A stretch of 64,000 nucleotides of DNA from a virus. The stretch is from positions 62,001-126,000 of the IMG/VR virus record IMGVR_UViG_3300044821_000131. One strand, written 5' to 3'. The position numbers and the translations under genes are program-made. The notes below the pieces were generated by a model. The model saw nothing but the letters and a program-made list of their open reading frames with translations. It was not told the origin of the DNA and searched no databases. Below, one piece after another: positions 16,545-45,766 of this stretch; position 1 is the stretch's first letter; each line of letters opens with the position of its first letter.

Positions 16545-16905
16545 AAAGGCAAAAGGTAAGAGAACCAAAATCTCGTCCTCGTCCTGCGGGGCTTCGAGGT
16601 TCAGGCTTCATATAAGTTATAGACCAGAGACACCTATCGAAATGTTTGGCGCCAAGCACAATCTCACGCTACACGTGGAGGAGCGCGAAGCAGATCGGCC
16701 TAATTACCGAGCAGATAATCGATATCATGCCAGCTTTCCAAATGTGGAGGTTAAGGACGGAATCTTTCTTAGATCTGTTTTCGGCGACGGCGATACGGTT
16801 GCAGCAGCACTTAAGGACTATTGTGGTCAACTGTCCTCGAAATGTATAGTGATTGACGCTATGCTGGAAACTCGTCGAGAGCTTGATGTGCCGAAACTCT
16901 TATGA
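16534..16905 (+). CDS. hypothetical protein
   Basis: 123 aa with a basic N-terminus. The C-terminal half (SVFGDGDTVAAALKDYCGQLSSKCIV) resembles small phage proteins of unknown function. It overlaps the next gene by 4 bases (ATGA). Confidence 0.6.
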   Translation: MKSKKAKGKRTKISSSSCGASRFRLHISYRPETPIEMFGAKHNLTLHVEEREADRPNYRADNRYHASFPNVEVKDGIFLRSVFGDGDTVAAALKDYCGQLSSKCIVIDAMLETRRELDVPKLL

Positions 16906-17693
16906 ACCTATATCTAAAAGATTCAGACGGTAATTGGAAATCACACAGCTACGAAACGTTATCCGATTTGGCCAATGAGTTTGCCAAACGTAACATAAAA
17001 ATCGGCAATGACGTGACGATCGGCGATTACGTGGCGCTCGGCAATGACGTGACGATCGGCGATGACGTGATGATCGGCAATTACGTGAGGATCGGCAATC
17101 GCGTGACGATCGGCAATTTCGTGAAGATCGGCGATTACGTGACGATCGGCAATCGCGTGGCGATCGGCAATCGCGTGACGATCGGCAATGGCGTGACGAT
17201 CGACAATTACGTGACGATCGGCGATGACGTGACGATCGGCAATCGCGTGACGATCGGCGATTACGTGGCGCTCGGCAATGGCGTGACGATCGGCGATGAC
17301 GTGGCGATCGGCAATGACGTGAAGATCGGCAATGACGTGGAGATCGGCAATGACGTGAGGATCGGCAATCGCGTGATGATCGGCAACGACGTGGAGATCG
17401 GCGATGACGTGATGATCGGCGATTACGTGGTTATTCCCAAAGCTGCGAACGTCCAACTCCAATACGACTTAGTAGTTATCAACAACTTGGGATCCCGGAA
17501 CGCGGCCTTATCTGCTGTTAAAATCAAGGATATCATCCATGTCGCGACTGGGTGCTTCAGTGGCACGATTGATGAGTTTGAGAAGAGGGTAAAGGAAGTG
17601 CATGGGGAGAGTGAGCATGGGCAACAGTACGCTATGGCTTTAACTTACATTCATTCGAGGTTGGGTCGTAAAACAAGAGCTCGGAAGAAATAG
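16902..17693 (+). CDS. hexapeptide-repeat left-handed beta-helix protein
   Basis: 263 aa. After a 33-residue N-terminal segment, residues 34-177 consist of 24 consecutive hexapeptides of the form (I/L)-G-x-x-V-x, which at three per turn gives eight turns of a left-handed beta-helix. Such helices occur in acyltransferases, but here the repeats are uninterrupted with no catalytic loop, so a structural or binding role is more likely. A C-terminal domain of about 85 residues (FSGTIDEFEKRVKEVHGE) may cap or trimerise it. Encoded by 18-base DNA repeats (17001-17432). Confidence 0.8.
   Translation: MNLYLKDSDGNWKSHSYETLSDLANEFAKRNIKIGNDVTIGDYVALGNDVTIGDDVMIGNYVRIGNRVTIGNFVKIGDYVTIGNRVAIGNRVTIGNGVTIDNYVTIGDDVTIGNRVTIGDYVALGNGVTIGDDVAIGNDVKIGNDVEIGNDVRIGNRVMIGNDVEIGDDVMIGDYVVIPKAANVQLQYDLVVINNLGSRNAALSAVKIKDIIHVATGCFSGTIDEFEKRVKEVHGESEHGQQYAMALTYIHSRLGRKTRARKK
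17001..17432 (+). repeat. 18-bp coding repeat, 24 units
   Basis: Units close to ATCGGCAATGACGTGACG, one per hexapeptide. Variation is concentrated at the second half of each unit (the x residues), while ATCGGC is nearly fixed. The similarity makes unequal recombination likely. Confidence 0.9.
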
Positions 17694-20615: not shown

Positions 20616-21902
20616 ATGCCAAGCTATGCATTCAAGTGGGATCCTTCGACCGGCACCTTCAGCCTTCCTACCGGTGACCAAGTTGCTGTGCCCGTTGCGC
20701 CGTCGAATCTTGTAGCCTTGGCGGTGTCCACTACAGCTATCGTTCTCACATGGAATCCTTCTCCGACGGCGAACGTAACCTATCTGGTCTATAGGAGTCC
20801 GAATGCCTCGTTCACACCCGGCACGGATACTTTGGTAGCATCTGGATTAAGAACTACGACTTTTACCGATACTGGCCTCGCACCAAGTACAATCTATTAT
20901 TACTACGTGGCGGCAATAGTGGTGGATTACGGCTCGGTTCTATCATTGTTGAGTAATGAGGGTTGGTCGCAAACGGTGTACACAACTACCACCACTACGA
21001 CAACCACTACAACGACAACCACGACAACCACTACTACGACGACCACGCCTACGACGACCACGACGACTACTACGGCTGGTACAACCACTACAACCACCAC
21101 CACTACCACCACCACTACCACCACCACCACTACAACCACCACCACCACCACTACCACGACCACCACGACCACCACGACCACCACCACCACCACCACTACA
21201 ACGACCACCACCACGACCACCACGGCACCGCCAGATCCTATTTTATGGATGAAGGGCGATGTTGGTTTATATAAGGATCTGGGTGTGACTCTGGCTACTG
21301 TGGGTGGGGATGCAATCGAACAATGGAACGACCAAAGCGGCAGCAACAACAACTTGACACAACTCACTCTTGCACACAGACCTTATTATAATATAGCTTC
21401 TGGTAGTCCTTATAATGGAAAGCAGTTCCCAGGTTTCAGTCTGGTACTCGGAAATAATGGCAACTTAACCAAATCCCCATTTATTTTGAATCAGCCGTTC
21501 ACCGTGATGTTTAACGTAGATCTTCCATCGCTCGGCTCGCATTGGTATCCGTTTGGCTCGATTGATAATACAAAGTACATAGCTGTAAGCGGTGCTTACC
21601 AAACTATCACAGTTAATTTCGGAACGCCGTTGATCGCAGCGTCGGTTAATCCGATTGGTGTAATATCGGTTGTAGTAAATGGTGCAAGTTCTAAAATAAG
21701 ACTTAATGGAGTGGATGTCGCTACTGGTAACGTTGGAAGTTTAGGACTTACTGATTTATTGGTGGGAACTACAGACTTCCCGCAAACTTTGGGCACGAAT
21801 CCCTATTTGTTGGAAATGATAGTGCATTCCGTGCGGTCTTCTGACTCCGACATCTCGGCGTTTGAGGCTTACGTGAAATCCAAATGGAACTGGCCGCACT
21901 GA
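20616..21902 (+). CDS. fibronectin III, poly-Thr, LamG-like surface/fibre protein
   Basis: 428 aa. Residues about 30-120 form a fibronectin type III domain (PSNLVAL..., VLTWNPSP, TYLVYRS, TFTDTGLAPSTIYYYYVAA). Residues 123-203 are almost only Thr (two short breaks: one Pro, one Ala-Gly). Residues about 207-428 resemble a LamG/concanavalin-like domain (ILWMKGDVG, WNDQSGSNNNLTQ). This is the shape of an extended fibre with a carbohydrate-binding head on a mucin-like stalk. No signal peptide is present, so it is more likely a virion component than a secreted protein. The poly-Thr stalk would be an ideal O-glycan acceptor for the next gene product (inference). Confidence 0.75.
   Translation: MPSYAFKWDPSTGTFSLPTGDQVAVPVAPSNLVALAVSTTAIVLTWNPSPTANVTYLVYRSPNASFTPGTDTLVASGLRTTTFTDTGLAPSTIYYYYVAAIVVDYGSVLSLLSNEGWSQTVYTTTTTTTTTTTTTTTTTTTTTTPTTTTTTTTAGTTTTTTTTTTTTTTTTTTTTTTTTTTTTTTTTTTTTTTTTTTTTTTTTAPPDPILWMKGDVGLYKDLGVTLATVGGDAIEQWNDQSGSNNNLTQLTLAHRPYYNIASGSPYNGKQFPGFSLVLGNNGNLTKSPFILNQPFTVMFNVDLPSLGSHWYPFGSIDNTKYIAVSGAYQTITVNFGTPLIAASVNPIGVISVVVNGASSKIRLNGVDVATGNVGSLGLTDLLVGTTDFPQTLGTNPYLLEMIVHSVRSSDSDISAFEAYVKSKWNWPH
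20982..21224 (+). repeat. ACN codon run, poly-Thr tract
   Basis: 81 codons, nearly all ACC, ACA, ACT or ACG in mixed order. The mixed codons argue for selection on Thr itself and against simple recent slippage. Other frames give His/Tyr/Asn or poly-Val antisense products that are shadows. Confidence 0.95.
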
Positions 21903-21904
21903 CT

Positions 21905-21933
21905 TTGAAAATTAACCATTGCGCGTTCATAAT
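21905..21933 (+). promoter_or_regulatory. possible sigma70-type promoter
   Basis: TTGAAA (21905-21910), 17-base spacer, CATAAT (21928-21933), in the 51-base gap before the first glycosyltransferase gene. No terminator is visible just upstream, so support is moderate. Confidence 0.4.
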
Positions 21934-21953
21934 TCCCGTGCGAGTCTTTCCTC

Positions 21954-23180
21954 ATGTGTGATCACTCACGATTCGAAATTCATGCCACCGTTGATCGTCA
22001 AGTACACGATCAAAAACTCAAATCCCTAAATCTTAAACTCGCCGTCAAATGCGTCGACTGCGGTCAAGAATTCTATGTGGCCGGCACCGCACCGGACCTG
22101 ATACTTAAAGAAAGAGAACCAGATGGCACAGTCCACACCTACGCCGCCACCCGTACCTTGCCCGTACTCGACGTGGCATCCTCCATCACGCCACTGCCTC
22201 CGCTGAGCATCATCATACCCGTGCTCAACGATAAGGATGAGGCCAATGCAACAATTCGATCAATCCGCGCAACCTCGCCGCCGGATGTGGAAATTATCGT
22301 GGTCGACGATGCCTCAGACAACGTCCTGGTGATCGAGGATAAGTCCGCACGCCTGATTCGATACAAACAACGTATAGGTGCTGGAGCTGCACGCCACGCG
22401 GGGGCATTCGAAGCCAAAGCGCCCTACTTGCTGTTGCTCGACGCGCATATGCGCTTTGATCCCGGGTGGTATGAGCCGGCCATGGCACGTCTTCGTAATA
22501 CTAAACTGAACGTCGTGTGGTGTGCTGCTTGTATGGGCCTTAGCGAGGAAAATATGGAGCTGACGCCACATACGCCGATGTACACTGGTGCTGATCTGAT
22601 CTTCTGGGACCCGATTACCAAGCGGGTGTTCGAAGGCGTGTGGCGTCCGGAGGTTCAACACGCGGACGACTATGAGATTCAGTGTTTGATGGGTGCTTGT
22701 TACTTTATGCGTCGCGATTGGTTCTTTCACATTCATGGTCTTGAGTGGAACAGGAAATGGGGCAGCGAAGAACCTTTTCTCTCGTTGAAGACTTGGCTGG
22801 CCGGCGGAACAGTGCGTCTGATGAAGAGCGTCAAGATCGGCCACAAGTTCCGCAATTCCACCCCGTACTCGACCGAGCTGTCCAGCATACTGTACAATAA
22901 GATCCGGGCGATGAAGGAACTGCTGCCCGACGAGCTGTACCAGTTTCTGCTCGCCAAGATCCCGGATGACAAAAACAAGTTTAGTGCTTTACAGCAAGTG
23001 AAATTCAGCGACGCGGACATCACTGAGGAGCAGGCATACTATAAAAAGATTTTCACACATGATGTGTACTGGTTCTTCGAGAAGTTCGGGATTAAGAATC
23101 CGCTTGACGAAACTAAGCTCGATGGTAATGTAACTTTGAGTGGCGGGTTGGCGCAGCCTGGCAGCGCGCAAGTCTCATAA
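21954..23180 (+). CDS. GT-A glycosyltransferase related to polypeptide GalNAc-transferases
   Basis: 408 aa. Residues 1-45 form a zinc-ribbon-like module (C2, H4, C33, C36) seen in small phage proteins. Residues 84-330 are a GT2/GT27-type domain: SIIIPVLND, IIVVDDAS, then LLLDAHMRF with the metal-binding D163-x-H165, WGSEEPF (269-275) and GHKFRNSTPY (296-305). The last three correspond to DxH, WGGEN and the metal-ligand GHxFR...TPY of ppGalNAc-transferases, which attach GalNAc to Ser/Thr. No ricin-type lectin domain is present. It follows the poly-Thr fibre gene and starts a sugar-transfer cassette. The last codons come from an overlapping tRNA, and its stop lies in the anticodon loop. The donor sugar is not predictable. 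Confidence 0.75.
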   Translation: MCDHSRFEIHATVDRQVHDQKLKSLNLKLAVKCVDCGQEFYVAGTAPDLILKEREPDGTVHTYAATRTLPVLDVASSITPLPPLSIIIPVLNDKDEANATIRSIRATSPPDVEIIVVDDASDNVLVIEDKSARLIRYKQRIGAGAARHAGAFEAKAPYLLLLDAHMRFDPGWYEPAMARLRNTKLNVVWCAACMGLSEENMELTPHTPMYTGADLIFWDPITKRVFEGVWRPEVQHADDYEIQCLMGACYFMRRDWFFHIHGLEWNRKWGSEEPFLSLKTWLAGGTVRLMKSVKIGHKFRNSTPYSTELSSILYNKIRAMKELLPDELYQFLLAKIPDDKNKFSALQQVKFSDADITEEQAYYKKIFTHDVYWFFEKFGIKNPLDETKLDGNVTLSGGLAQPGSAQVS

Positions 23181-23218
23181 ACTTGAGGTCGTTGGTTCAA
23201 ATCCAACATCCGCTCCCA
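23142..23218 (+). tRNA. tRNA with CAT anticodon (Met, or Ile2)
   Basis: A 77-base cloverleaf: acceptor GGCGGGT/ATCCGCT (G-T at 1-72), D arm GCGC-AGCCTGGCA-GCGC, anticodon arm CAAGT-CTCATAA-ACTTG, T arm GTTGG-TTCAAAT-CCAAC, discriminator C and an encoded CCA. The anticodon stem lacks the three G-C pairs of initiators, so elongator Met or lysidine-modified Ile is more likely. It overlaps the end of the glycosyltransferase gene. Confidence 0.93.
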
Positions 23219-23596
23219 ATTTGCTGAGTGCTGGACTAGTGGGGTGGCTGCGACGGACATGCCCCTGCGCCGTTTCCATTACGGTGAATTTTACGGCCCG
23301 TCGACGGTAGCTTGGTACAAGCAAGTTATCGCCAGCACCAGCAAACCCTCTGCCATATGCCCCCTCCGTAAAGTCCTATCTGATATCAAGTTATTCCCAA
23401 ATGCCTAGAGCTTATTGTCAGAAATACCTATATGTTCTTCTGACAGCTCATGTTGAAAACACGTATCTGTTTATACAACATACTTGTAGGTTTGTGCGTT
23501 TGCGGATTGGAGTGAAGGACGATACGATCCGCAATTTAATTTGACAGTACTTCTAGGCTGTGCGAGGTTGCCGCGTCACTGGTTCCTATTAAAACT
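23219..23596. other. intergenic stretch with two hairpins
   Basis: No gene seen. Two inverted repeats: TGTCAGAA/TTCTGACA (23416-23445) and TGCGGAT/ATCCGCA (23501-23533, followed by ATTTAATTT). A TTGACA at about 23551 has no good -10 partner. They may be processing or termination signals for the tRNA transcript. Confidence 0.5.
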
Positions 23597-23818
23597 ATGA
23601 GCAACGCATTCAGAACGGAATTGGCCGCGGCTATCAACAGGCACAGCAAAGAGAATGGCTCCGATACTCCGGACTACATTCTGGCGGAATACCTCGAACA
23701 CTGCCTGTACGTATTCGACCACGCCGTACATGCCCGGGAGATGTGGCGCCGCCCGACCGGCAACGTCTTGGATAACCTAAGTGTTCTTGGTAATCAAAGC
23801 ACATATTCAAATCGATGA
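23597..23818 (+). CDS. conserved small phage protein
   Basis: 73 aa. The pattern F-R-x-E-L-A..INRHSKENGSDTPDYILAEYLEHCL is familiar from many phages as a small protein of unknown role (helical, probably a dimer). It overlaps the next gene by 4 bases (ATGA). Confidence 0.7.
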   Translation: MSNAFRTELAAAINRHSKENGSDTPDYILAEYLEHCLYVFDHAVHAREMWRRPTGNVLDNLSVLGNQSTYSNR

Positions 23819-25143
23819 AACTACTTTCAATCTGTATAACCTCTTGGAATACCCGGCGCATGGTCGCCCGGAAACTGACTGCGATCGAGAGCGAGTTAAA
23901 AGACGTCGATTACGAAATCTTTGTTTACGAGCAAGGATCGGAAGATGATAGCGCCGAAATGTTACGCAATAGCCGGCGGCTTAACCAAAAGATACACGTG
24001 TTCTACGAGACCGAGAACAAAGGTCAGTGTATCTCTCGTAACTCAATGGCGTCAGCAGCCACCGGTGAGTTCATCCTGTTCTTGGATGGTGATATTGACC
24101 TCATCCCCGGCAGCATCAAAGCGATGCTTGATTTTTTACAGCACACCGATCGATCAATCGGAGCTGTGTGCTACGATGTAAAATCCGATACTCCGAATGA
24201 AGCTGACGCCACTAAAGCTGAGAATACAATTCTACTGGAAGATGTGGTGTTGACTCAGAGATTCATGTTCTTTCATTATGCCATGTGGCGCGCGGATACT
24301 GCTCTAAAGCATCCGTTACCTGAATTCGCGCCGTTCAATGGTCCAGGTTGGGGTTGTGAGGAAGATGCGGCACTGCTGTACACGCCGGGCACAACGACGG
24401 CCATTATAAAATATCGAAAGTTCTATCATGCCCGGGACCAGCGTTCCTTCAATTTTCTCGGTCAAGACGCCTTGGCCCGTAGTCGTGCCAAGCGCTGGGC
24501 CTCTCTTGCCTGTTTGAAGCAGTTGGACCCGCAGCAGATTAAAGAGTGCTTCGCCAGTCGTACCAGCCCCAATCTTGGCGGATTGCCAGCACACGTCGAA
24601 TTACCCGTTTCGAGTTTGACCTGCTCCGCAGCAATGTATGCCTTGGCGGAATACATGCCGTTTGATCATTCGGGTATGCCAAGTAAATTGGGACCGATTT
24701 GTATCGAGCATGAACTGGAGGTATTGAAAGTTGACAAATCTTTCGGGGTCAACAAGTCAACCAACAGGTGGATACCGAAGTCATGCAGCCCGATCTGGGT
24801 GTTGGCCAATGAGCCGGTGATCGCTACGAATCCGTCGAAACCGACATGCACCATACTTCGTGATCGATCGGTATGGTCATCATACGATCAGCTGCTCAAC
24901 GACGCGATCCACTGGTCGTTCTTTTATACAGACAATGTGCACATGCTGTTGCTGCTGTCACTGTCTGGAATACCGTGCGGTCTCATCGAGGACGTCAATG
25001 CTCCCGGCCGCAGGTTCGCGGTCCTCGACTACGGACTACTGCCCGACATGAACATCGATCAAGTCTTGGCCTTTAGATCGGTGGTGCAGCAACGTTGCTG
25101 TAGCCAAGTAATCATTCCTTTAACTAAAATGTTATCGATATAA
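23815..25143 (+). CDS. GT2 family glycosyltransferase
   Basis: 442 aa. N-terminal GT-A fold: LLSICITSWN, YEIFVYEQGSEDDS, ENKGQCISRNSMASAATGEFILFLDGDIDL, where DGD serves as the DxD metal and nucleotide-sugar site (residues about 92-94). A middle WGCEEDAAL gives a candidate catalytic acid region. The C-terminal 190 residues are not recognised and may bind the acceptor. Second transferase of the cassette; substrates unknown. Confidence 0.75.
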   Translation: MKLLSICITSWNTRRMVARKLTAIESELKDVDYEIFVYEQGSEDDSAEMLRNSRRLNQKIHVFYETENKGQCISRNSMASAATGEFILFLDGDIDLIPGSIKAMLDFLQHTDRSIGAVCYDVKSDTPNEADATKAENTILLEDVVLTQRFMFFHYAMWRADTALKHPLPEFAPFNGPGWGCEEDAALLYTPGTTTAIIKYRKFYHARDQRSFNFLGQDALARSRAKRWASLACLKQLDPQQIKECFASRTSPNLGGLPAHVELPVSSLTCSAAMYALAEYMPFDHSGMPSKLGPICIEHELEVLKVDKSFGVNKSTNRWIPKSCSPIWVLANEPVIATNPSKPTCTILRDRSVWSSYDQLLNDAIHWSFFYTDNVHMLLLLSLSGIPCGLIEDVNAPGRRFAVLDYGLLPDMNIDQVLAFRSVVQQRCCSQVIIPLTKMLSI

Positions 25144-25150
25144 AATTAAT

Positions 25151-25333
25151 ATGCCTGATAATAATTTCATCACGCCGCCGCCTTGCCAACGCCACAGTTG
25201 GGAGGTAGTGCGTACTGTGGCGCTGCGGTTCCCTTTACCCGGGGGATACTCGAGCAAAGTTTATCGTCCATTTGAGTACCTTCGTTGTCGACTGTGCGGC
25301 GAGGTATCGAGCCGGTGGAAGAAGATCGGATAA
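25151..25333 (+). CDS. small zinc-type protein
   Basis: 60 aa. C12, H14 and the CRLC pair near residues 47-50 could bind one zinc. It sits between glycosyltransferase genes with normal spacing. Function unknown. Confidence 0.5.
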   Translation: MPDNNFITPPPCQRHSWEVVRTVALRFPLPGGYSSKVYRPFEYLRCRLCGEVSSRWKKIG

Positions 25334-25336
25334 TCT

Positions 25337-25417
25337 ATGCCAGACTATTGGCCTATTGTCGTTGTGTTTCTCATCGGCCTATTCTGCGGCCTGTTTAAAA
25401 CTCGACAGAAATTATGA
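25337..25417 (+). CDS. 26-aa single-pass membrane peptide
   Basis: MPDYW followed by a hydrophobic segment VVVFLIGLFCGLF and a basic end KTRQKL, the make-up of a small inner-membrane peptide. It ends in an ATGA overlap with the next transferase gene, so it is probably translated. It might anchor or assist the sugar enzymes. Confidence 0.5.
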   Translation: MPDYWPIVVVFLIGLFCGLFKTRQKL

Positions 25418-26313
25418 GCACCAAATACTTGTACATCCTATGCAATGCCGGCCTCACCAATCGTATGCACGCCATCGCTGGCGCCCAGCGCCTGGCCGAA
25501 AAGACTGGCCGTGAACTTCGGGTGTGGTGGCCCCTTAATCGGCACCTCAATGCCCCATTCAAGCGATTGTTCACAAATCCATTGAATCTCCTGAAGCAGT
25601 TCGAGTTGGAGCATCTGTTGGAGACCGAAACCCGAGTGAAGTTCTACGATTGCGGTCCGAAGGAGGATGCCAGTTCCGGCGGCTATAATGTGGAGCGCGA
25701 TGATCCGCACGACATCATCGCCATCAAGACGTGGTATGTACCGAAGTTTCGAGGCGAAGGATTTCAGGACGTACTGCCGGAAGTCTTGCCCACCGTACGT
25801 GGTTTTAAACCTGTGCCGGAAGTAGTGGACATGGTGAAAGAAGCTATTAAACGGATCGACGGTTGGTGCAACGATGGCATGCTGTTTGGCGTGCACATTC
25901 GATACGGCGATGTGCGTCAGTATAACCCCAACGAGTGGGACGAAGCGATCATCAAGCGTTATGCCGCTTCGAGCGTCTTTGCATTTAACGTCGCGATCGA
26001 ACGCGTGCTGACACGTTTCCCGGAGGCCAAGTTTTTCTTGGTATCTCCCAATGTGGAAATTGAAAACAGATTTCGTGCTACCTATCTGGATCGGGTGTAT
26101 TCACCACTCAAGAGCACGGAAGGTCGTCTCGGCGTTCGCGGTATGCGCGAGGCCTTGGTCGATCTCCTTCTTCTTGCGCAGACCGATCTGATACTTGGTT
26201 CGGACTTCAGTCAATTCTCGAAGGCCGCGTCCGAGCTTGGTAACGTGCCGCTGGTTCAAGTTGGGAATTGGTGCTGGGAACATAAACTGGATCATTTGCT
26301 GGATAAACTGTAA
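25414..26313 (+). CDS. fucosyltransferase-like GT-B protein
   Basis: 299 aa. N-terminal LCNAGLTNRMHAIAGAQ resembles the GGLGNRM donor-site loop, and VHIRYGD at about residues 160-166 matches the HxRxGD motif of the fucosyltransferase superfamily (GT11, GT23, GT65-type). The later LLLLAQTDLILGSDFSQFSKAA matches the third conserved region. A GDP-sugar donor is therefore likely. Part of the sugar cassette. Confidence 0.7.
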   Translation: MSTKYLYILCNAGLTNRMHAIAGAQRLAEKTGRELRVWWPLNRHLNAPFKRLFTNPLNLLKQFELEHLLETETRVKFYDCGPKEDASSGGYNVERDDPHDIIAIKTWYVPKFRGEGFQDVLPEVLPTVRGFKPVPEVVDMVKEAIKRIDGWCNDGMLFGVHIRYGDVRQYNPNEWDEAIIKRYAASSVFAFNVAIERVLTRFPEAKFFLVSPNVEIENRFRATYLDRVYSPLKSTEGRLGVRGMREALVDLLLLAQTDLILGSDFSQFSKAASELGNVPLVQVGNWCWEHKLDHLLDKL

Positions 26314-26318
26314 ATATT

Positions 26319-27173
26319 ATGAAAACAGGTTTAATTTGGGTTTCCTACGCCAAAGATGTTTTATGGTTCGCTCTCTCTGCCGCGTCATATAGGAAGTTCG
26401 CGCGTGGTTGGGACATGGCGAAGTGCATCGTCCCCAAACAGGATGAAGAACAATTCAAGCCCCTCTGCGCCAATAACGGTATCGAGTTGGAAGCACTGGA
26501 GGAATGGACGGACAAGCCCTTCAATTGGCACCAGTTCATCAAATCGACCGCGGACCAACACCTGCCTAATGCCGATGTGATCTATCATATCGATTCAGAC
26601 GCCGTGTTCGCCCAGCCATGCACGCCAAAGGACTGGATGGTGGATACCCGCATTCTGATGCCGTACACACCGTATGACGCCTTCCTCAAACGCCCGGAAG
26701 ATGAGGATGAAATGCTTACCTTTATGGGCTATACCGGCAAGAAGGTTGATTTCGATCGGGGTCAGTACAATTGGCGTTTCGCTGTGGAATACGCATTGGG
26801 GCACCGCGTGGAGCGTGAGTGTATGGCTTGGAATCCAATTGTTCACTGGCGCCAGACGTACACGAAGATGCGCGATGTGATGAATACGCGCTGGCCTGGC
26901 CGAGGGTTTGACGGGTATGTGAGATCTTGTCGCGATCAACATCCGCAAACTTTTTGTGAGTTCAACACGTTGGGAGCGATTGCTCACAAATATTTTGACA
27001 GCAGTTATTTCTGGTATGACCTTCATTTCAATGGAAAATATCCTTTCCTTGGGAAGGTAATTCAGTCATGGTCTCACGGCGGCTTGGACCGACCACATGA
27101 CTATGGAGAACAGGTCCAAGACAAATCGATAAACACGCCGCGTAAACTTTTCGAGAGCATCGGCCTATTATGA
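26319..27173 (+). CDS. GT-A type glycosyltransferase with DSD motif
   Basis: 284 aa. VIYHIDSDAVF at about residues 88-98 has the DxD needed for metal and nucleotide-sugar binding after an N-terminal alpha/beta core. The pattern resembles the DUF6492 type, but this is only a visual match. It overlaps the next gene by 4 bases. Confidence 0.6.
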   Translation: MKTGLIWVSYAKDVLWFALSAASYRKFARGWDMAKCIVPKQDEEQFKPLCANNGIELEALEEWTDKPFNWHQFIKSTADQHLPNADVIYHIDSDAVFAQPCTPKDWMVDTRILMPYTPYDAFLKRPEDEDEMLTFMGYTGKKVDFDRGQYNWRFAVEYALGHRVERECMAWNPIVHWRQTYTKMRDVMNTRWPGRGFDGYVRSCRDQHPQTFCEFNTLGAIAHKYFDSSYFWYDLHFNGKYPFLGKVIQSWSHGGLDRPHDYGEQVQDKSINTPRKLFESIGLL

Positions 27174-27925
27174 GAGTATGGGTGATGACAGTCTGTCACA
27201 ACGAGGCGAAAATACTTCCGTATTTTCTGGCCCACTACAGTCAATTCGCTGAACGCATTCTGGTGTGGGACGATCAATCCACCGATGACACCCGGAAGAT
27301 ATTGGCCGCCAACCCTTGGACTACTGTGCGGGACTGGCCCTTCGATACTGGAATCGACGACGAGGCGTTCGTCAATTTCGCCCATGCGGCTTATCGCATC
27401 GCGCGCGGACGGGCAGATTGGCTGATCTACGTCGATACCGACGAGTTCATCTATCACCCGAATATCTTGCACTTTCTGACGCACAACACGGAGGGGTTGG
27501 AAGTGATTCAGACCTGCGGATTCAACATGATTGGTACTGGCACCGGCGATGGACTGCCCCCATTCAACGGTCAGCAGATATACGATCGATTTCCGATGGG
27601 CGTCCGTGCGCCGGTGTATTCGAAGCCGGTGGTTATTCGACCTGGTGTCGAGCTGCATTGGTCCCGGGGTAAACATAAGCTTGAACGCTGTGCTGTAAGG
27701 CTGAGCGCCACTCCGTTGTTGAAGCTGTTGCATTATCGGTATATGGGTCACGATTGTACCAAGACTCGAAATGCGAAGAATTACGAGCGTTGCGGACTGG
27801 TCAATGGGGACAAGGCCGCGGCTTGGACGTGTGCACCTGGGCACAGAGGAGAACATTCGGCCGTGTGGGCGGATCGCGTTGTCGGAGAAGCATTCAATGT
27901 ACTAAATTCACCATTATATGTCTAA
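27170..27925 (+). CDS. GT2/GT92-like glycosyltransferase
   Basis: 251 aa. MRVWVMTVCHNEAKILPYFLAHYSQFAERILVWDDQSTDDT then WLIYVDTDEF are typical of the Glyco_tranf_2_4 group, with DTD as the metal site (about residues 89-91). HYRYMGHD is near the C-terminal acceptor region. Overlaps both neighbours by a few bases. Confidence 0.75.
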   Translation: MRVWVMTVCHNEAKILPYFLAHYSQFAERILVWDDQSTDDTRKILAANPWTTVRDWPFDTGIDDEAFVNFAHAAYRIARGRADWLIYVDTDEFIYHPNILHFLTHNTEGLEVIQTCGFNMIGTGTGDGLPPFNGQQIYDRFPMGVRAPVYSKPVVIRPGVELHWSRGKHKLERCAVRLSATPLLKLLHYRYMGHDCTKTRNAKNYERCGLVNGDKAAAWTCAPGHRGEHSAVWADRVVGEAFNVLNSPLYV

Positions 27926-28688
27926 ATCATTTAACGAACTTATTAAGAAGATCCATCTCGGTACTAACCCTTTCGAAGGTTATCCAAAGGATCAATGGCC
28001 CGTCCAACACTGGGGCGGCTGGGGCTCCGATCATCCGTTCTTCGCGGAAATGGTGGCCAAAATTAAACCGCACCTGATCATCGAAGTCGGCAGCTTTCTC
28101 GGCGGTTCCGCCATCCAGCAAGGACAATTGCTGAAGAAGAACGGATTGAACGACTCCGCTGTGCTGTGCGTCGATACGTGGCTTGCTGAACAGATCCTGT
28201 GGTCGTTGCCGGATCAACGTGAGAAGCTCAAACTCCGCTTCGGCCGACCGTGCTTCTATTACACCTTCCTTAGTAACATCATCGATGTCGGCCTGCAGAA
28301 CATGGTGGTGCCGCTGTCTATGCCTAGTTTGAGTGCCGCGCGTTATCTTAAGCAATTGGGAGTCACGGCGCCGATGATCTACATTGACGGATGCCATGAA
28401 GAATTCGATTGTCGTCGGGATCTCGATATGTACTGGGATCTATTGGAGCCAGGTGGTGGAATGATCATTGACGATTACGTCTGCGGCTCTGACATGTTTG
28501 CCGGGCTGGTGCGTGATGTGAATCGATTCGTATACGATACGCATAACGATGCTTTGAACTACGATTGGTTTATACCTCAACACGAGGGCGTGCAGCCGCA
28601 GAGTATAACGGAGGTGCAATTAGCCTTCGGGTTGCGTAGCGACAAGGTGTGGCGGGAAACCAACAAGGTTGTCGTATGGAAAGTTTAA
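27918..28688 (+). CDS. class I SAM-dependent methyltransferase
   Basis: 256 aa. LIIEVGSFLGGSAIQ (about 55-69) is the SAM-binding glycine loop; VLCVDTW follows as motif II; MIYIDGCHEEFDCRRDLDMYWDLLEPGGGMIIDDY is the late Methyltransf_24-type region with its IDG-H and DDY acids. In a glycosyltransferase cassette it probably methylates a sugar, thereby capping a glycan (inference). Confidence 0.75.
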   Translation: MSKSFNELIKKIHLGTNPFEGYPKDQWPVQHWGGWGSDHPFFAEMVAKIKPHLIIEVGSFLGGSAIQQGQLLKKNGLNDSAVLCVDTWLAEQILWSLPDQREKLKLRFGRPCFYYTFLSNIIDVGLQNMVVPLSMPSLSAARYLKQLGVTAPMIYIDGCHEEFDCRRDLDMYWDLLEPGGGMIIDDYVCGSDMFAGLVRDVNRFVYDTHNDALNYDWFIPQHEGVQPQSITEVQLAFGLRSDKVWRETNKVVVWKV

Positions 28689-29005
28689 GTCCCAGTCTTG
28701 TATTCTGTGTCGTGGCGGGAGTCGCCTTGTTTACAGGATTGGGCGACTATCTCTCCAAGAAGTTCTCATTGAACCCAAATTGGCACTTGGCATTTTATGC
28801 TGCTTCGGCGTACTTGGTTGGAGTGCTATTTTGGTTTCGGATGATCTATCATTTTCAAAGTCTGGCCCGCGCTGGTGAGTTGTGGATACTTACGTCGGGC
28901 GTATTGTTACTGGTGATCAGCCAATGTATATTTCACGAGCCCTTGTCGCCGAGGCAATGGGCTGGTGTGGCATTGGGTCTGATCGCGATCGTGTTATTGT
29001 TGTGA
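28676..29005 (+). CDS. EamA/SMR-like small membrane transporter
   Basis: 109 aa with four hydrophobic helices and the spacing of EamA/small multidrug resistance half-proteins, including a GDYLSKKFS after helix one and EPLSPRQWAGVALGLIAIVLLL at the end. Similar proteins flip lipid-linked sugars (ArnE/F type). It overlaps the methyltransferase by 13 bases and closes the sugar cassette, so flipping a lipid-linked sugar is a reasonable inference. Confidence 0.65.
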   Translation: MESLSPSLVFCVVAGVALFTGLGDYLSKKFSLNPNWHLAFYAASAYLVGVLFWFRMIYHFQSLARAGELWILTSGVLLLVISQCIFHEPLSPRQWAGVALGLIAIVLLL

Positions 29006-29103: not shown

Positions 29104-29691
29104 ATGCAACATTACAACGTCGAGTGGGTCTACTACTTCTTGGGTATTATATTGTCGTTATGTGGTGTGTGGCAATTCTTGTGGAAGCCGCTAAACAAGT
29201 TCGTACGCAACGCTAGCCATATTGGACACAGCCTTAACAGCGCCCTTCCCGTCCTCATAAAAATCGCCGAAGAGTTCAAACCAAACGGCGGCAACTCCCT
29301 CCGCGACGTCGTCAACCGCATCGAAATCAACCAGGCCGTCAGCGATCAGCGCCATCGTGCCATCTACGCCTACTTGGACCTGCCAGTATTCGAAGCTGAT
29401 GCCAAAGGCGCCTACACGTTTGTATCGAAAGATTGGTGTAACGCCGTCAATCTATTTCCAGAACAAGCGTTTGCCGATGGCTGGATCAACTCGGTTCATC
29501 CGGAGGATCGCCAGAAGGTGATGTCCGAATGGAGAAACGCTGTGACCGAGAAGCGTGAATTTGCCTTGGACTACCGCCTTGCCGTTCCTCCCGATCGTGA
29601 AGCTGGTCGCGTCTATGCTCGGGCCTTTCCTGCGAGAGTAACTGCGGAGCGTCCTGTTGTTGGTTATGTCGGTACTCTGAGAAAGTTATGA
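29104..29691 (+). CDS. membrane-anchored PAS domain protein
   Basis: 195 aa. Residues 7-25 are a membrane helix, followed by a helical linker to about 90. Residues about 93-195 are a PAS_3-type domain: AYLDLPVFEADAKGAYTFVSKDW, GWINSVHPEDRQKVMSEWRNAV and the closing PVVGYVGTLRKL. No kinase, GGDEF or HTH output follows, so it may sense a ligand or bind a host sensor. Rare cargo for a phage. It overlaps the next gene by 4 bases. Confidence 0.75.
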   Translation: MQHYNVEWVYYFLGIILSLCGVWQFLWKPLNKFVRNASHIGHSLNSALPVLIKIAEEFKPNGGNSLRDVVNRIEINQAVSDQRHRAIYAYLDLPVFEADAKGAYTFVSKDWCNAVNLFPEQAFADGWINSVHPEDRQKVMSEWRNAVTEKREFALDYRLAVPPDREAGRVYARAFPARVTAERPVVGYVGTLRKL

Positions 29692-30155: not shown

Positions 30156-30608
30156 ATGCCTGATCTCATAATCGGTATCTCAGTCCTGCAACCTACTTGG
30201 ATCGATAAGGTCTATCGACTCTGGTTTCAAGCCCAGAAAGCCGACGGCGCAAAAAATCAAGGCTGGATCTTCGCCGTCGATAGCACGTCGGCCAGTACCT
30301 TGACCAAGATGCCCGAATACCCGGATGGCTGTAACTCGATCTGGCACTTCACCAGGCAGGGCGACACACTCAACTGCTCACCTTCGGTGAATTGGATATC
30401 TTGGGGTTTCCACAATGCTGGTAGCTGGACGACGCGCTATGTCGAGATGACCATCGCGGAACAGTCCATGTCGAAAGCGGGCGATGATACCGGCGAAGTC
30501 CCTACACGTTTGCGTATTGGACACACGGTTCATTACGATCTGAATAATGGTGCGGCCGATCCTCAGCAGGTGATCGCCGAGTACCGTCAGAAAGGGGTCC
30601 TGAAGTGA
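30156..30608 (+). CDS. hypothetical protein
   Basis: Not recognised with confidence. 150 aa; the segment SIWHFTRQGDTLNCSPSVNWISWGFHN looks conserved in style (metal- or ligand-binding beta-rich protein), but I cannot name a family. Its stop overlaps the GTG start of the RNAP gene. Confidence 0.55.
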   Translation: MPDLIIGISVLQPTWIDKVYRLWFQAQKADGAKNQGWIFAVDSTSASTLTKMPEYPDGCNSIWHFTRQGDTLNCSPSVNWISWGFHNAGSWTTRYVEMTIAEQSMSKAGDDTGEVPTRLRIGHTVHYDLNNGAADPQQVIAEYRQKGVLK

Positions 30609-32524
30609 ATCGGGCAGCACTCAGAGATGGACAATTCGCTGAGGTGCCCGATAAGGACATCGACTTTGAATTCACCTCTCCCAATCAATTTCTCGGCACC
30701 CATGCCAACTTGATCCCATTGCAGTCCGCAGTACAAGGTGGACGCCTGTTCTACGGCGCTCGATTCGCCAATCAGGCGTTGCCGATCAATAACTCGGAGG
30801 CCCCACTCGTACAGCTAAAGTCAGACGATGATCCGCAAGGCCGATCCTTCGACGAAATCCTCGGCGCCTCGGCTGGCGCCGTACACGCCAAACATGCCGG
30901 TACTGTACATGCTGTTACGCCAGACCATGTTATCGTTAAAACCAAGGATGGAGAAAAAGTGACACACGGATTGTACAACGAATTTCCGTATAACAGAAAG
31001 ACGAAGATCCACAACACTCCGGCGATTAAACCCGGGGATACTGTGGTCCCCGGACAGCTCCTCGCTCATTCCAATTTTACGGACAAGCACGGCACTCTGG
31101 CGCTAGGACTCAATGCTCGCGTCGGACTCGTGCCGTATCTTGGTCGCTCCATGGACGACGCGATTGTGATCAGTGAATCCTTTGCTAAACGTCTGGCCAG
31201 CAACCATGCCTACGGCTACGATCTCGACTACAAGCGTGGTGTGAAGGGCGGCAAAGCGCATCATGTCGGGCTGTTTCCCAACAAGTTCATTAATGACCAG
31301 TTAGATAAGCTGGACGATGAGGGGATCGTGAAGCCGGGACAGATTGTTAATCCTGGTGATCCGATCATCTTGGCCACGCGGCCACGCGTTGTGTCCTCAG
31401 CTTCGGCGCAGTTGGGTCTTCTGTCCAAACATATGAAGAACGCGCGCACGGATGCTTCCGTTCTATGGGAGCACGAAACTCCCGGGCGTGTGGTGGATGT
31501 CCACCGCGGTCGTGGTGGGGTGAAATTGAATATCCATACGGATGTGCCTACGCAGGTGGGCGATAAGCTCGCATTCAGAAGCGGAGGCAAGGCGGTTATA
31601 TCCACCATCCTACCAGACGAACACGTACCGCGCACGGCAGATGGCCAGCCATTGGAGGTTCTGCTAAATCCTCAGAGCATACCATCCCGGGTCAATCCGT
31701 CCTTGGTCTATGAGCTCCTGCTCGGCAAGGTCGCAAAGAAAACCGGACGCCCCTACAAACTGCCAGCCTTTACCAAGAACGGCGAAGCCTGGCACAATGT
31801 CGTCAAAAAAGAACTGGATGATAACGGCCTCACCGATACCGAAGACGTCTTTGACCCCCTCCTGAATAAAAAACTCGAGAACCCCATCACCGTCGGTAAT
31901 GGCTATGTCCTGAAATTACACCACACATCCGCCAGCAAGATAAGTGCTAGAGGTCAAGGTAGTTACAGCTCAGATCAGGAGCCGCTTCATGGTGGTGGTG
32001 AGGGTGGGCAGGGCAAGCGGTTATCGGGACTCGAGTCGGGTGCGTTATTGTCATCTGGGGCGTACGGGGTATTACGGGATGGTGCTACGGTACGTGGGAC
32101 ACGCAACGATCAATTTTGGCGGCAGTTACGTGCGGGGCAGGATCCGGCTGAGCCTGGCAGTTCGTTTGCGTGGGAGAAGTTCCGTGCTTTGTTACAGGGG
32201 TCTGGTTATCAGGCGCGCAAGCTCGGGGCTGGTCGGGAGCGTTTAGGTTTTTGGACGGACAAGGATTTAGCGGAGCGCAAGCCGATCAAGGTGAAGACCG
32301 GGGATATTGTGGATTTGAATTCCCTAGACCCAGTTCGAGGTGGGCTATTTGATCCGGCCCTGACGGGCAATCAGAGCTGGGGTTCGATCGATCTACCCAC
32401 CGCGTTACCAAACCCGGCGGCCGAGGATGTGATTTGCAAGATGTTGGGGCTTACGAATGCGCAGTATCGAAGGATACTGGCTGGAGAAGAGTCTTTACCC
32501 GAGCATTTGCTTCATCCACAATAG
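30605..32524 (+). CDS. RNA polymerase beta subunit, C-terminal half (phage multisubunit RNAP)
   Basis: 639 aa, GTG start in a GTGA overlap. It begins at the equivalent of about residue 650 of E. coli beta. Recognisable: GRSMDDAIVISES (180-192, the GYNFEDSILVSE region), GDKLAFRSGGKAVIS (319-333, equal to GDKMAGRHGNKGVIS with both catalytic-centre lysines kept), LNPQSIPSRVN (354-364), and KLHHTSASKISARGQGSYS (equal to KLNHLVDDKMHARSTGSYS). The N-terminal half is not in this window, so beta is split as in phiKZ-like phages. Together with 43724 and 55096 it would form the catalytic core. Confidence 0.9.
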   Translation: MNRAALRDGQFAEVPDKDIDFEFTSPNQFLGTHANLIPLQSAVQGGRLFYGARFANQALPINNSEAPLVQLKSDDDPQGRSFDEILGASAGAVHAKHAGTVHAVTPDHVIVKTKDGEKVTHGLYNEFPYNRKTKIHNTPAIKPGDTVVPGQLLAHSNFTDKHGTLALGLNARVGLVPYLGRSMDDAIVISESFAKRLASNHAYGYDLDYKRGVKGGKAHHVGLFPNKFINDQLDKLDDEGIVKPGQIVNPGDPIILATRPRVVSSASAQLGLLSKHMKNARTDASVLWEHETPGRVVDVHRGRGGVKLNIHTDVPTQVGDKLAFRSGGKAVISTILPDEHVPRTADGQPLEVLLNPQSIPSRVNPSLVYELLLGKVAKKTGRPYKLPAFTKNGEAWHNVVKKELDDNGLTDTEDVFDPLLNKKLENPITVGNGYVLKLHHTSASKISARGQGSYSSDQEPLHGGGEGGQGKRLSGLESGALLSSGAYGVLRDGATVRGTRNDQFWRQLRAGQDPAEPGSSFAWEKFRALLQGSGYQARKLGAGRERLGFWTDKDLAERKPIKVKTGDIVDLNSLDPVRGGLFDPALTGNQSWGSIDLPTALPNPAAEDVICKMLGLTNAQYRRILAGEESLPEHLLHPQ

Positions 32525-43683: not shown

Positions 43684-43723
43684 CTTTCCATCCGTTGCAT
43701 TCATTAGTACATTTGCCTTGTAT

Positions 43724-45766
43724 ATGACCGATCCAACCACGTCTTGGGAAAACGCTGCATTCATTAAATTGGCGCGTCAGGGATCTATCGTGTTTCTGCC
43801 AACGTCCGACGGAAACTACTTGCTGCAGCGCGAGACCAACGGCAACCTGCGCCCACCTGGTGGTGGCAAAGACCGCAGCGACAAAGGGCTGTTCGACTGC
43901 ATTGTGCGCGAGATCCACGAAGAGTTCGGCCTTGATCCGTTGGAAATCAAAAAGAAACTCAAATTCCTCGGGTTTGAATACAGGAAACCTTTCTGGGGAA
44001 ACGCCGTATTCGAGCTGCGACAGCACGGTCTCAAACCCGGCGTCTATCAAGCCAGTAATGATCCCAGTGAGAAAATTCACCTGGTACGTGCCTCCGTTGA
44101 CCATGACGACTACGTAGGTCCCTATCCCCATAAACTGCTCTCGGATGCGGCCAAGGAGAAGGGTGATGACCTTTTCAAATCGGCGGAAGATAAATCCAAA
44201 GAAGATCGGGAAATCATTGCGGTCGACTTCGATGGCGTTTTGGCGAAGCACATGGAAAATCAGACCTCGCTTGGTGAACCGGTGCCCGCCATGATCGACA
44301 AAGTGCAATCTTGGATCGCTGAGGGTAAGCATGTCGTAATCTTCACTGCCCGGGCGCATGATCCGAAGAATGTACCGGCCATCAAGGCTTGGATCAAGGA
44401 GCACGGTTTGGGGGATCTCGATGTTACCAACCGAAAGATTCCGGAGATGTCGGTGTTCTATGACGACAAGGCGGTGCAGATTCGGAAGAATACAGGCAAA
44501 GTGGCACGGTCGATAATCGTCTGCCCCGTGGACGATTTGGACAAATCCGCGGCAGTCACCCCGCAAGTCACCCCGCAAGTCACCCCGCAAGTCACCCCGC
44601 AAGTCACCCCGCAAGTCACCCCGCAAGTCGCGAGTCCCACCACCGGTCCCGAAGCCATCGGACTTGCTTTGAGCAATCTCGATCTTAATCAAGAGGAGGT
44701 GCGGGCCAATGCAGAGATCAAACGCGGGCTGAAGACGAAACGCGGCTCGGCCGTGAAGCGTCTCGGATTCATTCAAGGATTCCGTCGGACCGGTGTACAC
44801 CCGAAAGATCTGATGCTGAAACAGGTGCCCGTCATTCCGCCACAATTCCGGCCATTCTCTGTCGCAGGCGACGTATTCATTCCCGGTGATGCCAACGAAC
44901 TCTATCGCGATCTGATCAACATGGTCGGCGTGCACAAAGAGCTTCAACGTAATTTGGGTGAAGGTGGTGCAGCCTCAAATAAATTGAGGATATATGATGC
45001 GATGCGCGCCGTGTATGGTTACGGGGAACCAACGGCGCCGAAGACTAAGGAGCGTGGAGTATCAGGCTTTCTCAAGAAGCTGACGGGTAGCAATCCTAAA
45101 TTCAGCTATTCGAACCGGCATCTATTGAGTCGTGATATGGATTTTGTGGGACGTGGTGTCGTCGGTGTCGATCCTGATATGAATTTGGACGAGATTGGAG
45201 TTCCGGAGGAAATGGCGTGGAAGATTTATGCCCCGTATATTCAGCGCCGTTTAGTGCGCAGTGGCATGGGCCTTGAGGCTGCAGTGCGATCTGTTCGTGA
45301 TAAGAACGAACAAGCACACAGGATGTTGCTGGAGGAATCTAAAGAACGTCCCGTCATGTATTCTCGTAGCCCGGCTTGGCATAAATTTTCGGTGCTGGGA
45401 GGCTATCCGAAAATTATTCCTGGTAACACTGTTATGGTTAATCCGTTGGTTACAAGCGGCTTAGGTATGGATTTTGATGGCGACACCTGTAATATTCATG
45501 TTCCGGCACTTGCTGACGCGGTGGATGACGTCAAGAATAAATTGATGCCATCGAGGATGTTATTTTCGACCAAAGGTCGGGATCAGGTGATGCCTACGCC
45601 CAAGCAGGAAATGATTCTCGGTATGGCCTCGGCGCAGCAACGTCCTTCAAAGCGTCCGCCGGTATCTTTTCCTGACGAGGCCTCGGCACTAGCGGCCATC
45701 CATAACGGTTCGGTGCGTTTAAGTGATGAGGTTCAGATTGGTAAGGCAAAGCCGATCATAGCATGA
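43724..45766 (+). CDS. Nudix - HAD - RNA polymerase beta-prime N-terminal fusion
   Basis: 680 aa. Residues 20-140: Nudix hydrolase, box G48-x5-K54-x7-R62-E-x-x-E-E-x-G-L70; the first Glu is Lys, but the REx2EE metal ligands are intact. Residues 160-270: HAD phosphatase, nucleophile D168 in VDFDGV, motif II IFTAR, acids in YDD. Residues 277-300: VTPQ repeated six times. Residues about 315-680: RNAP beta-prime catalytic part, with VIPPQFRPF, a DFVGRGVVGVDP segment, MYSRSPAWHK and the invariant Mg site DFDGD (583-587, all three Asp kept). Phi-x-K-x-A motifs occur at 13-17, 150-154 and 272-276, exactly at domain borders. TTG 43718 could add two residues. Overlaps the next gene (ATGA). Confidence 0.9.
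   Translation: MTDPTTSWENAAFIKLARQGSIVFLPTSDGNYLLQRETNGNLRPPGGGKDRSDKGLFDCIVREIHEEFGLDPLEIKKKLKFLGFEYRKPFWGNAVFELRQHGLKPGVYQASNDPSEKIHLVRASVDHDDYVGPYPHKLLSDAAKEKGDDLFKSAEDKSKEDREIIAVDFDGVLAKHMENQTSLGEPVPAMIDKVQSWIAEGKHVVIFTARAHDPKNVPAIKAWIKEHGLGDLDVTNRKIPEMSVFYDDKAVQIRKNTGKVARSIIVCPVDDLDKSAAVTPQVTPQVTPQVTPQVTPQVTPQVASPTTGPEAIGLALSNLDLNQEEVRANAEIKRGLKTKRGSAVKRLGFIQGFRRTGVHPKDLMLKQVPVIPPQFRPFSVAGDVFIPGDANELYRDLINMVGVHKELQRNLGEGGAASNKLRIYDAMRAVYGYGEPTAPKTKERGVSGFLKKLTGSNPKFSYSNRHLLSRDMDFVGRGVVGVDPDMNLDEIGVPEEMAWKIYAPYIQRRLVRSGMGLEAAVRSVRDKNEQAHRMLLEESKERPVMYSRSPAWHKFSVLGGYPKIIPGNTVMVNPLVTSGLGMDFDGDTCNIHVPALADAVDDVKNKLMPSRMLFSTKGRDQVMPTPKQEMILGMASAQQRPSKRPPVSFPDEASALAAIHNGSVRLSDEVQIGKAKPIIA
44555..44626 (+). 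repeat. 12-bp coding repeat x6 (VTPQ linker)
   Basis: Six identical units GTCACCCCGCAA encode the VTPQ linker between the HAD and RNAP domains. Perfect identity indicates recent expansion and tolerance of linker length. Confidence 0.97.

What the first reader, a model, noticed from the sequence alone, without database searches (positions are those of the whole stretch)
20616..29005. Mucin-like fibre next to a ppGalNAc-transferase-like enzyme: a possible phage O-glycosylation system
A fibre with about 78 Thr residues in a row is followed at once by a glycosyltransferase that keeps the DxH, WGxE and GHxFR...TPY motifs of polypeptide GalNAc-transferases, enzymes that glycosylate Thr-rich stalks in animals. 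Then come a GT2, a fucosyltransferase-like GT-B, two more GT-A enzymes, a methyltransferase and an EamA-like membrane protein. Motifs are seen directly; the acceptor link is inference from adjacency and chemistry.
Basis: partly seen in the sequence, partly recalled or inferred. Interest (0 to 1): 0.88.

Follow-up and report, generated by a model that had tools for sequence, protein, structure and literature searches.

The report
Phage threonine stalk with sugar-adding enzyme
A giant phage makes a fibre with a mucin-like stalk of 78 threonines and, in the very next gene, an enzyme that looks like the animal enzymes that hang sugars on such stalks; the same gene pair turns up in many unrelated uncultured phages, so phages probably build their own sugar-coated, mucin-like fibres.

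Summary
ORF 20616-21902 is an FN3 domain, a stretch with 78 Thr in 83 residues (longest pure run 48), and a C-terminal domain of unknown fold. It is the only Thr-rich ORF of 308 in this 204-kb phage record. 51 bp downstream lies a 408-aa GT-A enzyme. Its best PDB sequence hits are all polypeptide GalNAc-transferases (best 1.8e-21), and so are the top 50 fold hits. DxH, the third metal His, WGxE and GHxFR..PY are all kept; the lectin domain and the Golgi anchor are absent.
The new evidence is comparative. Genes of the GT2 fold occur in 27/49 viral records with poly-Thr tracts against 8/50 poly-Gly controls. Within 3 kb of the tract they are DxH-type (13 DxH, 0 DxD); farther away mostly DxD. DxH...GxEE genes sit beside 12/119 poly-Thr loci, 0/120 poly-Gly and 0/120 poly-Ser loci, usually as the next gene. 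A second, divergent DxH family also fits ppGalNAc-Ts best; one of its clades has no Thr partner.
Best explanation: O-glycosylation of the stalk in the cytoplasm by the neighbour enzyme, then elongation and methylation by the cluster. Sugar and acceptor are unproven. Mycobacteriophage virion glycosylation is the known precedent; the poly-Thr pairing appears undescribed.

The parts
20616..21902 (+). Poly-Thr fibre protein (428 aa): FN3 domain (residues 28-104), 83-residue Thr tract, C-terminal domain of about 220 aa with no detected family
   Evidence: ORF list; FN3 PF00041 1.2e-7 and FN3 PDB hits 2.4e-8; weak phage tail fibre/virion PHROG hits
20979..21227 (+). Poly-Thr tract: 78 Thr with P and AG interruptions; proposed O-glycan acceptor
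   Evidence: direct count and codon usage; unique in genome
21954..23180 (+). GT27-like (ppGalNAc-transferase-like) GT-A glycosyltransferase, 408 aa; residues 1-80 are an N-terminal extension of low model confidence, GT-A core from about residue 81
   Evidence: PF00535 8.6e-22; PDB phmmer top 16 all ppGalNAc-Ts; AlphaFold model with top-50 Foldseek hits all ppGalNAc-Ts
23142..23218 (+). tRNA-Met(CAT) gene overlapping the 3' end of the GT ORF
   Evidence: ARAGORN
23597..23818 (+). small ORF (73 aa) between the first GT and the rest of the cluster
   Evidence: sequence read directly
23815..25143 (+). GT2 glycosyltransferase (442 aa), DGD motif; candidate elongating enzyme
   Evidence: PF00535 5.6e-18; second of only two PF00535 matches over cut-off in the genome
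25414..26313 (+). weakly NodZ/fucosyltransferase-like protein (299 aa, HIRYGD motif)
   Evidence: PF05830 3.5e-4, below the curated cut-off
26319..27173 (+). protein of unknown family (284 aa); GT-A identity not supported
   Evidence: no Pfam, NCBIfam or PDB match
27170..27925 (+). GT-A glycosyltransferase (Glyco_tranf_2_4)
   Evidence: PF13704 1.3e-16
27918..28688 (+). methyltransferase, sugar O-methyltransferase-like (Methyltransf_24 / RMNT_CmcI)
   Evidence: PF13578 7.3e-13, PF04989 27.5 bits
28649..29005 (+). small EamA-like membrane protein; likely start at 28679
   Evidence: PF00892 2.8e-8; weak ArnE-like hit 9.5e-4

Best explanation
The phage makes a mucin-like fibre. The neighbouring GT-A enzyme (21954-23180) transfers a sugar from a UDP-sugar of the host cytoplasm onto hydroxyls of the poly-Thr tract of the fibre (20616-21902) before or during virion assembly. 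The downstream GT2, fucosyltransferase-like and Glyco_tranf_2_4 enzymes then lengthen or branch the glycan, and the methyltransferase caps it. The result would be an extended, protease-resistant, hydrophilic bottle-brush stalk between the FN3 domain and the outer C-terminal domain. Shown: the gene pair, the homology and fold, the conserved metal and catalytic motifs, the mostly synonymous variation of the tract, and the recurrence of the pair in unrelated phages. Inferred: that the tract is the acceptor, that the ORF is a virion fibre, the identity of the sugar (GalNAc, GlcNAc or another), the order of the later steps, and the role (stalk stiffening, shielding or adhesion).
For: The only Thr-rich ORF of 308 ORFs in the phage is directly followed by one of only two genes over the PF00535 cut-off, both in this cluster. 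GT27 fold and motifs. PF00535 occurs in 27/49 poly-Thr viral records against 8/50 poly-Gly controls, Fisher 5.6e-5; within 5 kb of the tract 15/49 against 3/50; within-contig permutation p = 0.001 at 5 kb. Genes within 3 kb of the tract are 13 DxH, 0 DxD, 6 unclear; those beyond 5 kb plus controls are 5 DxH, 17 DxD, 23 unclear; Fisher 9.7e-6, and 8.7e-5 for DxH against DxD after dropping near-duplicates. DxH...GxEE ORFs in 12/119 poly-Thr, 0/120 poly-Gly, 0/120 poly-Ser loci. In the reverse search the Thr-rich ORF lies at position -1 in 10 of 63 loci but in about 1 of roughly 600 ORFs at other positions. Metal ligands D, H, H and the GxEE glutamates are invariant between the window enzyme and 12 tract-adjacent ones. 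The second family (A4) also matches ppGalNAc-Ts best by sequence (6.7e-10) and by fold (4e-15). The Thr proteins mostly share no similarity outside the tract. Several tract-adjacent enzymes are fused to methyltransferase domains, echoing the methyltransferase gene here. GT60-like (PF11397) enzymes lie beside Thr/Pro mucin-like proteins in other phages (L002) and beside (PTEP)n proteins in Cyanobium-type cyanobacteria.
Against: No biochemical evidence. The acceptor is inferred from adjacency and homology. GT27 enzymes are the main solved DxH GT-A structures, so best-hit searches favour them whatever the acceptor. One large clade of the related DxH-GGEE family lies between a nuclease gene and a capsid-protease-like gene with no Thr-rich neighbour. 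The GalNAc-contact loop AGG of GT27 is MGA here, and the lectin domain is missing, so the donor may not be UDP-GalNAc. No close relatives exist in which to test strict co-inheritance. An EamA-like gene in the cluster leaves room for a membrane-glycan role.
Confidence: 0.66

Rival explanations
1. The cluster modifies host surface glycans (as in serotype conversion, GtrAB-like): the enzymes act on lipid-linked or surface polysaccharide, the EamA-like protein flips the carrier, and the fibre is an unmodified neighbour.
For: Weak GtrB-like PHROG hits (2.3e-5 and 4e-7); EamA/ArnE-like membrane protein in the cluster; NCBIfam hits of both PF00535 enzymes to polysaccharide glycosyltransferases, all far below cut-off.
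Against: The first enzyme fits ppGalNAc-Ts far better than any polysaccharide enzyme (1.8e-21 against 1.4e-3 for chondroitin synthase). The recurrent pairing of DxH enzymes with Thr tracts, and not with poly-Gly or poly-Ser tracts, is not expected under this view.
Confidence: 0.13
2. The enzyme glycosylates another virion protein (capsid or tail tube), as in mycobacteriophages, and poly-Thr is only a flexible linker.
For: Mycobacteriophage capsid and tail-tube O-glycans made by phage enzymes (reported second-hand in PMC12619734 and PMC12363180). A related DxH clade lies next to a capsid-protease-like gene without Thr-rich neighbours.
Against: Would not explain why near-tract enzymes are DxH (13 to 0 over DxD) while distant ones are mostly DxD, nor the position -1 bias.
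Confidence: 0.13
3. Adjacency is a by-product of a hot spot for accessory genes next to variable fibres; the poly-Thr tract and the glycosyltransferase have no functional link.
For: Fibre-proximal accessory gene clusters are common in phages (general knowledge); many poly-Thr loci have no recognised DxH neighbour in the DNA held.
Against: Enrichment is specific to the DxH class and to Thr tracts; the Thr protein is usually the immediately preceding gene, often with gaps of 16-60 bp.
Confidence: 0.06
4. The glycosyltransferases decorate phage DNA bases.
For: Phage glycosyltransferases that modify DNA are known (cited in PMC12619734).
Against: No Tet_JBP match (where the controls also gave nothing, so weak) and no thymidylate-synthase-type enzyme in the 204-kb record; GT27-like fold; genes sit beside a fibre gene.
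Confidence: 0.02

Closest known systems
Animal and Toxoplasma polypeptide GalNAc-transferases (CAZy GT27)
   Same: GT-A fold, DxH plus third His metal site, WGxE, GHxFR..PY; top sequence and fold matches; proposed Thr-rich acceptor
   Different: No Golgi membrane anchor, no C-terminal ricin-type lectin domain, AGG loop replaced by MGA, WGGEN/Q replaced by WGSEE, different N-terminal extension, phage-encoded
GT60-type peptide GlcNAc-transferases (Pfam PF11397, GlcNAc)
   Same: LDAHMRFDPGW motif of the window enzyme recurs in PF11397 proteins L002 and L409, which lie beside Thr/Pro-rich proteins
   Different: Window enzyme matches PF11397 only at E 0.043, below cut-off
Mycobacteriophage virion glycosylation (Che8 gp110, Corndog gp38, Myrna)
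   Same: Phage-encoded glycosyltransferases that O-glycosylate virion proteins (PMC12363180, PMC12619734; original paper Freeman et al. 2023 not held)
   Different: There the glycans are at C-termini of capsid and tail tube proteins; here the proposed acceptor is a poly-Thr fibre stalk; tblastn of this enzyme against 50,697 phage records gives no match
Chondroitin/heparosan synthases and TarP (GT2 polysaccharide enzymes)
   Same: GT-A fold, weak sequence matches
   Different: About 18 orders of magnitude weaker E-value than GT27 for the window enzyme

Membership tests
GT27 polypeptide GalNAc-transferase | GT-A fold closest to ppGalNAc-T catalytic domain | tested here: met
   Foldseek top 50 all ppGalNAc-Ts, E 4e-20; phmmer top 16
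GT27 polypeptide GalNAc-transferase | DxH metal motif plus third metal His | tested here: met
   D163, H165, H297 aligned to ppGalNAc-T10 and invariant among phage relatives
GT27 polypeptide GalNAc-transferase | WGxE and GHxFR..PY catalytic/peptide motifs | tested here: met
   WGSEE and GHKFRNSTPY aligned with WGGEQ and GHIYRKYVPY of T10
GT27 polypeptide GalNAc-transferase | GalNAc-contacting AGG loop | tested here: not met
   MAGG of T10 aligns with LMGA; role of the loop from general knowledge of GalNAc-T2
GT27 polypeptide GalNAc-transferase | C-terminal ricin-type lectin domain and type II membrane anchor | tested here: not met
   408 aa, no lectin Pfam match; alignment ends at the catalytic domain
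GT27 polypeptide GalNAc-transferase | Transfer of GalNAc from UDP-GalNAc to Ser/Thr | not testable with these tools
   needs biochemistry
GT60 / PF11397 | Pfam profile match over cut-off | tested here: not met
   E 0.043, 13.7 bits against 21
Phage virion glycosylation system | Glycan on a virion protein that depends on a phage glycosyltransferase | not testable with these tools
   precedent from papers only
Gtr-type serotype conversion | GtrA flippase, membrane-anchored GtrB and a polytopic acceptor-specific transferase | tested here: inconclusive
   Only a small EamA-like protein and partial GtrB-like PHROG hits to N-terminal regions; no GtrA or Gtr transferase hit among the cluster proteins
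Phage DNA glycosylation | Tet/JBP or hydroxymethylase to make the base acceptor | tested here: inconclusive
   No PF12851 or PF00303 match in the record, but PF12851 controls were also silent and the record may be incomplete

The most novel reading that the evidence does not exclude
Phages of many lineages carry a two-gene 'phage mucin' module: a stalk protein whose poly-Thr tract is the only shared feature, and a dedicated DxH GT-A polypeptide O-glycosyltransferase (GT27/GT60-like) encoded next to it. This would be mucin-type O-glycosylation in the prokaryotic virosphere, possibly with further enzymes that lengthen and methylate the glycan.
Probability: 0.58. Interest if true: 0.88.

Novelty: new variant of a known kind. 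Interest (0 to 1): 0.78.

Why it matters
Mucin-type O-glycosylation is regarded as essentially a eukaryotic system. If phages run their own version on fibre stalks, it changes how fibres are thought to reach hosts, resist proteases and evade binding. It gives a function to the poly-Thr linkers that are common in uncultured phages, raises the question of the origin of GT27, and offers compact lectin-free peptide glycosyltransferases with natural poly-Thr substrates that can be tested in E. coli.

Tried and rejected
Searches for close relatives of the enzyme in viral contigs (only L002, at 31%), in GenBank phages (none) and in bacterial genomes (only a Cyanobium GT60-like gene). Two DxH-GGEE enzymes also have no match in GenBank phages. 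A scan with the second GT found no relatives. A scan with the RNA polymerase subunit to find sister phages found none, so strict synteny could not be tested. DNA modification was considered and set aside. A first motif-classification script had strand errors and was redone. Foldseek against viral structures gave many phage and giant-virus GT2-like proteins, with nothing decisive. A wider PF11397 survey in the order of Cyanobium showed that most members (IDSHMRA type) have no Thr-rich neighbour; only the IDSHMRFDP subtype and one PT-repeat locus do. Literature searches for poly-Thr or Thr-rich phage glycosylation found nothing on point. HMM-based counts partly use seeds from the poly-Thr set, so the motif and PF00535 tests are taken as the main evidence.
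Full report
What was checked. The window is bases 62001-126000 of a 204,257-base viral record. ORF 20616-21902 encodes 428 aa with 112 Thr; residues 122-204 hold 78 Thr in 83 positions, in runs of 22, 8 and 48. The codons are ACC 39, ACG 17, ACT 13, ACA 9. Third positions are free while first and second positions are almost invariant, which points to selection for Thr, although repeat expansion can copy existing variants. The tract is preceded in frame by an FN3 domain (PF00041 1.2e-7) and followed by a domain of about 220 aa with no detected family. Among 308 ORFs of at least 100 aa in the record no other comes near this Thr density (40/40 against 12/40).

The neighbour enzyme. ORF 21954-23180 starts 51 bp after the fibre. 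By sequence its 16 best PDB matches are all polypeptide GalNAc-transferases (T10 1.8e-21; entry 8uhv, listed only as 'Glycosyl transferase', is T. gondii GalNAc-T3); chondroitin synthase follows at 1.4e-3. The AlphaFold2 model is confident in the GT-A core (blocks of about 86-95 pLDDT from residue 81 to 190) and poor in the N-terminal 80 and C-terminal 20 residues. All 50 best Foldseek hits in the PDB are ppGalNAc-Ts, E down to 4e-20, TM about 0.6 over the query. DxH, the third metal His, WGxE and GHxFR..PY are kept; the AGG loop that contacts GalNAc is MGA, and there is no lectin domain. So it works like a GT27 catalytic domain, but the donor sugar cannot be read off.

The rest of the cluster. 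A tRNA-Met gene overlaps the 3' end of the enzyme gene and a small ORF intervenes. In the whole record PF00535 is matched over cut-off only by the two genes at 21954 and 23815.

Comparative test 1, poly-Thr contigs. A scan of IMG/VR for (ACN)25 stopped at its limit with 119 loci; most are poly-Thr linkers in large structural-looking proteins. Poly-Thr as such is therefore common. PF00535 occurs in 27 of 49 such records against 8 of 50 records with poly-Gly tracts, of similar total length (3.06 and 2.73 Mb; Fisher 5.6e-5). Within 5 kb of the tract the counts are 15 and 3 (p 0.0017), and shuffling the tract position inside the same contigs gives p 0.001 at 5 kb, 0.005 at 3 kb and 0.12 at 10 kb, so the association is close-range. 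A few records are near-duplicates.

Comparative test 2, enzyme class. Of PF00535 genes within 3 kb of a tract, 13 have DxH, none DxD and 6 are unclear; of those beyond 5 kb and in controls, 5 have DxH, 17 DxD and 23 are unclear (Fisher 9.7e-6; DxH against DxD after removing near-duplicates 8.7e-5). DxH followed by GxEE is found in 12 of 119 poly-Thr loci, usually in the next gene, and in 0 of 120 poly-Gly and 0 of 120 poly-Ser loci. Many loci end near the tract, so 12 is a lower bound; on the other hand only 33 of the poly-Ser and 70 of the poly-Gly loci have the tract in a clear reading frame.

Comparative test 3, residues and folds. An alignment of the window enzyme with 12 tract-adjacent enzymes, at 19-27% identity, keeps D163, H165, G270, E272, E273, H297 and F299 invariant. 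Further divergent relatives beside poly-Thr genes (L099, L105, L118, L121) keep DxH and the third His. The DxH-GGEE family, modelled at pLDDT 95, also has only ppGalNAc-Ts among its top 50 PDB folds, and its profile finds ppGalNAc-Ts first (6.7e-10). The Thr proteins themselves mostly share no similarity once the tract is masked, which argues for repeated pairing by function.

Comparative test 4, reverse direction. Searching viral contigs with the DxH-GGEE alignment gave 422 relatives, the best 80 of them fetched. A Thr-rich ORF is at position -1 in 10 of 63 and at other positions in about 1 of 600; some of these loci overlap the discovery set. A clade of 12 non-redundant enzymes instead sits between a nuclease gene and a capsid-protease-like gene without Thr-rich neighbours. 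The tree places Thr-paired enzymes throughout the rest of the family, but its long branches make deep placements unsure. The class is thus linked to Thr tracts but not tied to them.

Comparative test 5, bacteria. The closest genome hit is a PF11397 (GT60-like) enzyme in Cyanobium beside a (PTEP)n protein and type I secretion-like genes. Two related genomes show the same arrangement, and another locus has a PT-repeat protein nearby. Most PF11397 genes of that order have no such neighbour. The phage L002 has the same kind of enzyme directly before a Thr/Pro-rich protein.

Reading. The simplest account of all this is that DxH GT-A enzymes of the GT27/GT60 kind serve Thr-rich tracts encoded next to them, here the stalk of a fibre. 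Donor sugar, sites, glycan length and function are not shown. Mycobacteriophages are the precedent for phage-encoded virion glycosylation (reported in PMC12363180 and PMC12619734; the original paper is not held). No paper on poly-Thr phage stalks was found, within a library that lacks most subscription journals.

Noticed in passing
window 23142-23218: A tRNA-Met(CAT) gene overlaps the 3' end of the glycosyltransferase ORF, so the last residues of the enzyme are encoded within the tRNA gene; possibly a recombination or insertion scar.
   Followed up: no
window 16902-17693: Hexapeptide-repeat protein made of almost perfect GN/GD-V-TIG repeats (PF00132 2e-37), with a long antisense ORF; looks like a recently expanded left-handed beta-helix.
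   Followed up: no
window 30605-32524, 43718-45766, 55096-56940: Split multi-subunit RNA polymerase genes; the 43718 ORF also carries a match to a phosphoheptose isomerase family N-terminal to its RNA polymerase part, perhaps a fusion.
   Followed up: no
window 29104-29691: Phage-encoded protein with a hydrophobic N-terminus and a PAS domain (PF08447 1.1e-8) right after the glycosylation cluster.
   Followed up: no
L302-L368: A clade of DxH-GGEE glycosyltransferases lies between a PD-(D/E)XK-like nuclease gene and a capsid-protease-like gene in many viral contigs; it may modify a head protein.
   Followed up: partly
L059, L087, L106, L057: Tract-adjacent DxH enzymes are fused to methyltransferase domains (L059, L106; weak in L087) or to a GNAT acetyltransferase (L057), suggesting built-in modification of the added sugar.
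   Followed up: no
L409, L458, L459: Cyanobium-type genomes carry a GT60-like enzyme beside a (PTEP)n-repeat protein and, in L409, type I secretion-like genes: a possible bacterial counterpart.
   Followed up: partly
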